NCBI GenBank assembly: GCA_018105865.1
Contig: CM030833.1
Coordinates: forward strand, 14,500,881 to 14,564,880
From: Metaphire vulgaris
Taxonomy: Eukaryota > Annelida > Clitellata > Crassiclitellata > Megascolecidae
Reading direction: 5' to 3'
DNA length: 64,000 nucleotides
Shown here: one piece after another, positions 36,001 to 39,000 of the stretch
How the letters are laid out: the number at the start of each line of letters is the position of its first letter
Numbering within the stretch: position 1 is the stretch's first letter
Notes under the pieces: generated by a model
Databases searched by the model: none
What the model saw: only the letters and a program-made list of their open reading frames with translations
Told to the model about the DNA's origin: nothing
Translations under genes and position numbers: made by a program

Positions 36001-39000
36001 CTGCAAACACAAGAATAAGCACCCATTGTCCAAAGTTTAGGTCCCTGTGTGACCCAATCAGTGCATAATAGAGGTTCTGAGCTTTCTGTGATGTCACATT
36101 TCGTAAGTTTTAAAGTTTGTATTGTTTATCAGGTATTATTTATACAATTTTATTTTGTAAAGATTGGTAATGTTTGCTAATTTTAGTCAATTTTCTGTAG
36201 TCTTGAAGCTGGATTGACTGCAATGACTTGATATCCTATTCAAATAACACTATGTAACACGATTTTTGTTCCTGGCTTCTAAGTGTTATATTTCAGTTGC
36301 CTATGTATAAAGGATCTGCAAAAATGGCTATATTCATCATTATATTTGCTTTCATGGGCACAGCTTACAAAAGTTGTTTATTTATACAATGGAAAAGGTG
36401 CATTTTTTCTTCTCGAAAATGAACATTATGTACTAATTGCAAATAAGCAACAACAGTCAAAATTACTTAAAAACATTCAGAAATGAGTTGCTTTTCGAGA
36501 TTTGTGTCTGTACTGTCAATAGCTTTCTCAATGAAGACTTCAGACATAGTCCCCACCACGTGTTTGTTATACCGTCCCTGGTAACGACGTTCGAGTCTGA
36601 TGAAGGCGTTCATCTTTGCTCTCTGGGTAGGCTCCCAAGTTTTCCTTGAATTTGTCAAGGTGGGCATGAAGAATATGTACTTTCAAGGACATTTTGCATC
36701 TAATTTTGGCATGGTTCTTTATGAGAGACTGGTTCAGTCTCTCATAGTTTTCAGCCTTTGGTTTGCCAAGAAAGCCATACAATACTGATGTTTCAAGACC
36801 CTTTCTCCGTGCTATTCAGCTTCTTGGCGAAGTCACGCTGTGTGATCTTCTTTATCTGTGGTCTGACGAAGATGCCAGCTGCGACTTTTGCCTCCGAAAG
36901 CTGGGAAAAGCTCTAGGAGGTATTTGAAAGCTGCGGATTCCTTGTCTTGACAAATTACTTGATGAGGCCTAACTTGATGTATGAGCATCTTTCGACGGTG
37001 TATCAGCGGCTGCCACTTGATGCTGTTCTTACCTGTGGTGAACTTGGTCAGCTGTGGCCAATCCCTTCTACAGTACAATAGTGGACCTCAGACGTCGGTG
37101 TCCCCGGTTGTTCTAGAGGCAAAGAAACCCAAAGAAATGTTGTGAAACCGCCTTGCAGACCCATCAGGAATGTCACCATTTTGACCATATTGAAGTCTCC
37201 AATGACTTAGCAGCCATAGTTGTCATACTTCAAGGCACTCAGCAACATCTTGACACTGGTGTAGTCTTCTCTGAGGTGCAGGTGCACAAAGTGAGCCATG
37301 GGGAGAGACAAGTACTTGTTACCACTATGAAGTAGCATGGCTTTGAGGTTCTTGGATGAACTCTTTTGGCACCATCATTCAGGTTAAAGATGATTGCTAT
37401 GGCCAAAAAAAGACCAGTGACATTGCTGCAGAAGCACAGCCCATCTAGCTGGCTGAAGAATTTGGAAAAACGTTAAGACGCTTTCTCTGTTCTGTCACCT
37501 GCACACTTTCATCCAACAAGTTCCAGTCCTTGAGTCTAGACATCAGAAGCTCAGCATTGCACTTGGTGAGATAAAGGTCTATGATCAGGTCGTTGAGATC
37601 TTTCTGATTGGGGAAGTACGGCTTTCTCATCTCAGCTATTTCTGTGCAATAGCATCCTGGATCTGCAATATCTTCCTCGCTGTCTGTAAACGCGCTGTTG
37701 ATCCTTCTCTGTAGGGATGGGAATGGGGGCTCAGAGCCATATTTATAATGCATTTGCTGGCTGCAAGCAGCCTCTTGATGCCATCTAAATCAATTTTTTC
37801 TGGTCACTATTAAACTTATTCAGCAACAAGATACACTAGTACGTTGGCTTAAGAAATCTGCACTCTTAAAAGTCTTGCAACTGAAAGCTCCCAGAAAGTG
37901 CAACAGGGTTCTAGAAGATTCCAGAAGGTTATAGAAAATTCTGTTCAGATCTAAAAACTTATGGACAGCTTGCAATATTCCAGAATAATAAGTATGTCTG
38001 CTCAGCTTTGAATGTGAACCGAGAATGTGTTCTATAATACACGAATTTCAAAATATCATTGCCCTGACCCCAAAAGCAAATTCAGTTTGAAACAAAAACT
38101 GTTTTCTAGTTAGTTTAGGCATAAGGGACTAGGAAAACAAGCTATGAACCCAGGAACAAACAAAAATATTTTTTTTGTTACGTAGTGTAATCAAGATATA
38201 TTTCAAATATATTTGCACACACACACAGTGCCCCACACACTGGAATCCTGGCTATACAAATGAGTGTAACACTGTTAATATCTTTAATATCACAGTCTGG
38301 GGAATTATTCAGATTTTTGAAGTTGTGTTGTATTGACCAGGATGTGAAGTTGTGTTGTATTGACCAGGTTGTGAAGTTGTGTTGTATTGATTGTTGTATC
38401 GACAGAGCAGAGGTTACGCACACGTGTGTGTGTATACTGTACTTTGTATGGTTATGTGTTTATTATGTTGACATTGAGAGTGTTGTCGGAGAGTTAAATT
38501 TGATTTCTTGCTTGAATTCCAAATTATTTAAATATATTTGATTGTTAGTTGAACTGTGTTTGGTAATACACAGTGGAATATGTAGAAAACACATTATATA
38601 GGGCTTTGAGTTTGATGCGACGTTTTTCCGGGAAATATGAGGGACTCAGAGGTTCTAAATATGTGGGGAAAACTCCTGAAATTTCCTATTTATGCGTCTA
38701 AATTTCCCATTTATGCACTGCACATTTGTGAAGTTGCGGTGTTTTTTTGGTGAAAAAGGGCTGACGAGCAAAACAGGTCATTCAGACGGGCACTGATCCC
38801 CTGTAAATCTATACCTATATTAGTAAAATAGCAGAAAAGTGCTATATATGTGATGAAAGTAGCTAAAAATGCGGATTAAATTGCTGCGTAATTGTGCAGA
38901 ACTTGCATATGTTGAGAAAATGGCTGAAGATGCAGCACATTAACAAAAATTTGTTAAATATGCGGCCGCACATGCGATCGCATAATTGCATCAAACTCAC

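What the first reader, a model, noticed from the sequence alone, without database searches (positions are those of the whole stretch)
37909..37941. Near-perfect heat shock element array upstream of a dead transposon frame
Six of seven consecutive 5-bp steps match the alternating TTC/GAA rule of heat shock factor sites, four of them in an unbroken row. It lies about 150 bp upstream of the 5' end of the minus-strand transposon-derived frame (36470-37770). Seen: the array and its position. Known: some plant and nematode transposons carry HSEs and respond to heat. Inferred: this family may have been heat-inducible and could spread HSF sites, here into a RhoGAP intron.
Basis: partly seen in the sequence, partly recalled or inferred. 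Interest (0 to 1): 0.75.

Follow-up and report, generated by a model that had tools for sequence, protein, structure and literature searches.

The report
Jumping gene carrying heat-shock switches
A defunct, once-mobile piece of DNA present in many copies in this animal genome carries a textbook binding site for the heat-shock master regulator at the same spot in the copies examined, so it has scattered potential heat-response switches, although no heat response has been shown.

Summary
The array is real: TTCtaGAAgaTTCcaGAAggTTAtaGAAaaTTC at 37909-37941, 6 of 7 units, 4 in a row; 0 of 3000 simulated 64-kb windows reached 6 of 7. It lies inside a complete transposon, 36248-38187, with CACTA termini and a TAA target duplication, 124 bp upstream of the start codon of a broken DDE-type transposase. 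It is identical in 21 of 21 aligned copies, which were found through the array region. Of four copies matched through the transposase frame (two not seen before), 4 keep the four-unit row and 3 the full array. A 33-bp pattern modelled on the array has 193 hits in the 728-Mb genome, reversed control 0; 77 of 100 listed are this family's by their letters. Two relatives have 7 of 7. Upstream stretches of 22 sister-lineage loci have none. So one lineage of CACTA-type elements carries an HSF-type array in its transposase promoter region, became defective and spread the array. HSF binding and heat induction are inferred, not shown. Constraint on the array within the family could not be separated from ascertainment. 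The RhoGAP-intron claim is not established.

The parts
36248..38187 (-). complete non-autonomous CACTA-type transposon, 1940 bp (most other copies about 2.0 kb)
   Evidence: alignment of 21 copies with abrupt loss of similarity at both ends
36245..36247 (.). target-site duplication TAA, left
   Evidence: TAA on both sides in the window; identical 3-bp flanks in 18 of 20 other copies
38188..38190 (.). target-site duplication TAA, right
36248..36259 (+). left terminal repeat CACTATGTAACA
38176..38187 (-). right terminal repeat, CACTACGTAACA read on the minus strand
37909..37941 (.). heat-shock-element array, 6 of 7 units (7 of 7 in relatives L029 and L030)
37978..37985 (.). separate two-unit site TTCCAGAA, present also in L029 and L030
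37782..37784 (-). position of the ancestral transposase start codon (MASRGC...)
   Evidence: frames opening MASRGC in copies L009, L013, L020, L028; same start in relative P0006; CAT in the window
36470..37784 (-). decayed DDE-type transposase frame with internal deletion of the N-terminal part, frameshifts and stops
   Evidence: fold of a relative

Best explanation
This is one copy of a non-autonomous, CACTA-type cut-and-paste transposon family. An ancestral autonomous member of this one lineage carried a seven-unit heat shock element array in its transposase promoter. Under heat, trimeric heat shock factor (HSF) would bind the array and switch on the transposase. A derivative that had lost the N-terminal part of the transposase and acquired stops was then amplified by transposase supplied in trans. 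The copies examined still carry the array, so the family has dispersed strong potential HSF sites. Shown: element boundaries, position of the array, its presence in the copies examined, its absence from the sister-lineage upstream stretches sampled, the broken frame. Inferred: HSF binding, heat induction of the ancestor, any effect on nearby genes.
For: Array inside the boundaries and at one offset in 21 of 21 aligned copies (chosen by similarity of 37780-38000). The four rows with 56-59% identity and matches starting at residue 125-132 are family copies; all 4 keep the four-unit row. Two of them (L071, L072) were already on the lists; L069 and L070 were new. 193 genome hits of the 33-bp pattern against 0 control; 77 of 100 listed are family-type, counted by eye. 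20 four-unit arrays in 20 elements, 0 in 157,691 flanking bases. Seven of seven units in L029 (78% identical) and L030. 0 of 22 sister-lineage upstream stretches have an array. Position 124 bp upstream of the start codon. 3-bp target duplication in 18 of 20 other copies. One stop shared (STEKGS*NSFVAV) in 7 of 10 copies translated, as expected if an already broken copy was amplified.
Against: No expression, ChIP or heat data. No intact array-bearing copy was seen (only 77 of 5938 protein candidates were scored). Within the 221-bp query region the array (0 of 33 variable columns) is not significantly more conserved than the rest (10 of 188; p = 0.37). L029's core match is mostly forced by the pattern that found it; with forced columns removed the surroundings are only slightly better conserved than elsewhere (58 of 66 against 420 of 546, p = 0.04). 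The 33-bp pattern was modelled on this array, so the family's share of hits is biased upwards. In L069 the array is broken after the four-unit row. The window copy has one degenerate unit (TTA). I saw no strong TATA box between array and start codon (by eye, no call).
Confidence: 0.6

Rival explanations
1. Passenger: the array arose by chance or as a short, slightly decayed 10-bp tandem duplication (TTCTAGAAGA/TTCCAGAAGG/TTATAGAAAA) in one founder and hitch-hiked; it never drove heat-dependent transposition and is silent in chromatin.
For: Units resemble a 10-bp repeat; other 10-bp repeats in this genome (TTCCGGAAAT) also give the pattern (L034, L035). One founder event suffices for all copies. 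The array is not measurably more conserved than its surroundings within the family.
Against: The window's composition predicts about 0.009 such patterns in the whole genome, yet this one sits in the transposase promoter region; relatives L029 and L030 have 7 of 7 units, and a second TTCCAGAA nearby is kept too, though both were found by the array pattern.
Confidence: 0.27
2. Subterminal binding sites: the repeats are transposase-binding sites of the kind known near the ends of plant CACTA elements (recalled), needed for transposition, and only resemble heat shock elements.
For: The array lies 246 bp from the right terminus, a plausible subterminal distance.
Against: The motif is not repeated as an array at the other end, which has a single TTCTCGAA at 36410; the sister-lineage stretches sampled, with CACTG-type termini in most of them, lack it.
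Confidence: 0.08
3. Host-gene capture: the array and adjoining bases were picked up from a host heat shock promoter and are foreign to the transposon lineage.
For: The sister-lineage stretches sampled lack it (0 of 22); two non-family arrays look by eye like promoters (L031, L032).
Against: No host source sequence was found; BLAST of the element against the five non-family loci L031-L035 gave no match, and no wider search was made. It concerns origin and is compatible with the best explanation.
Confidence: 0.1

Closest known systems
Helitrons of Caenorhabditis with HSEs (Garrigues et al. 2019, PMC6927752; passages read)
   Same: DNA transposon families, mostly non-autonomous copies, that hold a large share of the genome's HSEs; HSEs also lie in the promoter of a full-length element's own gene
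   Different: Helitrons are rolling-circle elements and the paper describes high-density HSE clusters; this is an element with inverted termini and target duplication and one compact array. HSF-1 binding and heat induction were measured there, not here
ONSEN/COPIA78 and related Brassicaceae COPIA elements (PMC5059998; title and start of abstract in a search listing only)
   Same: heat-responsive elements in the transposon's own regulatory region
   Different: LTR retrotransposons of plants, activated by heat stress
HSF binding in Alu repeats (PMC3334603; title and start of abstract in a search listing only)
   Same: a repeat family that carries HSF sites
   Different: short retrotransposons (recalled); title speaks of an antisense mechanism
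CNEST, a CMC-group DNA transposon of Cryptococcus (PMC12810828; passages read)
   Same: CMC-type DNA transposon inserting more often at 37 C than at 30 C, in a clade with unclassified animal transposases
   Different: 2-bp TA duplications; the passages seen report putative HSEs in LTR elements TCN3 and TCN12, none in CNEST

Membership tests
CACTA/EnSpm DNA transposons | termini beginning CACTA or CACTG | tested here: met
   CACTATGTAACA / CACTACGTAACA; most sister-lineage stretches show CACTG at the 5' boundary (read by eye)
CACTA/EnSpm DNA transposons | 3-bp target-site duplication | tested here: met
   TAA in the window; 18 of 20 other copies with identical 3-bp flanks, not L021 and L010
CACTA/EnSpm DNA transposons | CMC-type DDE transposase | tested here: inconclusive
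CACTA/EnSpm DNA transposons | subterminal repeats at both ends (recalled) | tested here: inconclusive
   TTCnnGAA motifs cluster at one end only; no other repeat class was tested
HSE-bearing heat-responsive transposons | at least three contiguous alternating units inside the element, in many copies | tested here: met
HSE-bearing heat-responsive transposons | array upstream of the element's own gene | tested here: met
   124 bp upstream of the start codon position
HSE-bearing heat-responsive transposons | HSF binding and heat-induced transcription | not testable with these tools
   no expression or ChIP data on hand
Helitron | no terminal inverted repeats and no target duplication (recalled) | tested here: not met
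   this element has both
LTR retrotransposon (ONSEN-like) | long direct terminal repeats | tested here: not met
   the ends are short inverted repeats; no direct repeat pair joins the two ends in 35800-38800

The most novel reading that the evidence does not exclude
In this animal a single cut-and-paste transposon lineage hijacked the heat shock response in its transposase promoter and, after losing its gene, still supplied most of the genome's long HSF arrays of this form (77 of 100 listed hits of a pattern modelled on it), acting as a dispersed heat-responsive regulatory network or as a sink for HSF.
Probability: 0.25. Interest if true: 0.72.

Novelty: new variant of a known kind. Interest (0 to 1): 0.5.

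Why it matters
If heat-inducible, it would be an animal cut-and-paste DNA transposon of CACTA type whose transposase promoter is an HSF target, adding a mechanistically different class to Helitrons and plant LTR elements. It would let one test whether heat bursts spread HSF sites and whether dispersed arrays rewire or titrate the heat shock response. Sister lineages without the array provide natural controls in the same genome.

Tried and rejected
Within-family purifying selection on the array: first suggested by a 69-column invariant block at 37888-37956, then dropped because the copies had been chosen by similarity to 37780-38000; inside that region the difference is not significant. An unbiased census from the left end and a genome count of four-unit arrays could not be run because the genome search stayed busy; chance alone would give about 98 four-unit rows in this genome. 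An hsp70 promoter of the same genome as positive control was planned and never run. An intact array-bearing copy was looked for with P0006 and not seen; only 77 of 5938 candidates were scored, so this is not evidence of absence. Relatives of P0006 in viral contigs: no match to the six peptide patterns used. Solved structures by sequence: two hits at E 0.79 and 0.87 only. Foldseek alone gave no confident fold match (best transposase row of higher probability was the P element, E 0.059). Host identity: 17 contig starts were sampled and an intact sister transposase was searched; the host was not identified. Paper searches in which the rows listed showed no animal CACTA element with HSEs: searches (19 of 19 listed; 15 of 793; 11 of 11; 15 of 38; 0 found; 2 of 2; 12 of 19) was about the CMC group. 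The library holds open-licence PMC papers only. A preprint on a sea anemone (PMC13104882, passages) cites the Helitron work and adds no such element in the passages seen.

Full report
1. Observation. Positions 37909-37941 read TTCTAGAAGATTCCAGAAGGTTATAGAAAATTC: six of seven 5-bp steps fit the TTC/GAA alternation and the first four are unbroken. Four-unit rows in either phase occur once in the window. In 3000 first-order Markov simulations of the window none reached 6 of 7 and 41 had any four-unit row. The genome holding the window (728.3 Mb, 246 contigs; host not identified) has 91+102 matches, some overlapping, to the 33-bp pattern TTCnnGAAnnTTCnnGAAnnTTnnnGAAnnTTC and 0+0 to the pattern read backwards. 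The window's trinucleotide frequencies predict about 0.009.

2. What it lies in. A search with 37780-38000 found 40 scored matches among 249 candidates (a lower bound). Twenty of the 40 were fetched with flanks (L009-L028); they align with the window over about 2.0 kb, and similarity stops abruptly at both ends. The window element is 36248-38187, 1940 bp, beginning CACTATGTAACA and ending TGTTACGTAGTG, flanked by TAA on both sides. Identical 3-bp flanks are found in 18 of 20 other copies, exceptions L021 and L010. The array is therefore inside the element, 246 bp from its right end.

4. The array across copies. It is identical in 21 of 21 aligned copies. These were ranked by similarity of the region that contains it, so this is partly by construction: in the query region 10 of 188 other columns vary against 0 of 33 in the array (p = 0.37), whereas outside the query region 285 of 1533 vary. 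The transposase search (100 rows) includes four family copies, recognised by 56-59% identity and a match starting at residue 125-132: L069-L072. Two of them (L071, L072) were already known to carry the array; L069 and L070 were new. All four keep the four-unit row at the same offset and three keep the whole 6-of-7 array; L069 has a 6-bp insertion after unit four and a changed unit six. Of the 100 hits listed (of 193), 77 are family-type by their letters, counted by eye, and 23 are not. The pattern was modelled on this array, which raises the family's share. Five of the 23 non-family hits were fetched and none matches the element: by eye L034 and L035 hold TTCCGGAAAT repeats, L031 and L032 have a TATA-like box close to the array, and L033 is an A+T-rich repeat-like stretch. 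In the 20 fetched loci there are 20 four-unit arrays inside elements and 0 in 157,691 flanking bases.

5. Relatives. L029 is 78% identical over 646 aligned positions and has 7 of 7 units at the same offset. L030, which matches the element over 301 aligned positions only (86%) and continues by eye into a different piece of transposase-like coding sequence, also has 7 of 7. Both were found by the pattern, which fixes 20 of 21 core positions; with those removed, the surroundings of the array in L029 match at 58 of 66 against 420 of 546 elsewhere (p = 0.04). A second TTCCAGAA at 37978 is present in both. Sister lineages of the same transposase clade, several with intact frames (two examples), were examined over about 0.7-0.95 kb upstream of the match at 16 and 6 loci: best scores 2 of 7, once 3, against 0-3 in 60 flank pieces, so 0 of 22 have an array. 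The first 16 fall into six groups, one with 10 loci, so independent lineages are fewer than loci; in L075-L078 the match begins well inside the protein, so the true promoter may lie partly outside the stretch.

6. Mechanism. The array lies 124 bp upstream of the ancestral start codon, a promoter-like position. The most economical reading is that one lineage gained an HSF array driving its transposase, that a defective derivative was amplified by transposase supplied in trans, and that the array was spread with it. HSF binding, heat induction and effects on neighbours are inferred. No array-bearing intact copy was seen, with only 77 of 5938 candidates scored.

7. Known systems. Caenorhabditis Helitrons carry HSEs, bind HSF-1 and include heat-induced full-length elements (PMC6927752, passages). 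Plant COPIA/ONSEN and Alu are parallel cases (search listings). CNEST, a CMC-type DNA transposon of Cryptococcus, inserts more often at 37 C (PMC12810828, passages); putative HSEs are reported there for LTR elements. The rows listed by paper searches showed no animal CACTA-type element with an HSE array; several lists were capped and the library holds open-licence papers only.

8. Verdict. Confirmed. It is ordinary in kind (a transposon that carries heat shock elements) but unusual in element type, in compactness of the array and in its restriction, as far as sampled, to one lineage. The RhoGAP-intron statement is not established.

Noticed in passing
window 56376-56477 and 56760-56834, + strand: Two weak RhoGAP-domain matches (E 5e-4 and 7e-5, both below the gathering score) to adjoining parts of the profile, possibly consecutive exons.
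   Followed up: partly
L031 about 390-460; L032 about 410-475: Non-family HSE arrays with a TATA-like box close by (read by eye), possible genuine heat shock promoters of host genes.
   Followed up: partly
L034, L035: TTCCGGAAAT repeats that mimic long HSE arrays; many of the 23 non-family hits listed have these letters.
   Followed up: no
L079 45-1730 (+), L080 140-1843 (-): Intact 561- and 567-residue open frames of sister transposase lineages; the clade is very widespread (1542 proteins at E <= 1e-100 to the L079 protein).
   Followed up: partly
L030 430-505: Rearranged family member joining the array-bearing region to another coding-like piece followed by a possible splice donor (GTAAGG), by eye.
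   Followed up: no
window 13776-14105, - strand: Frame that looks by eye like part of a non-LTR retrotransposon ORF; weak, sub-threshold DUF6451 match.
   Followed up: no
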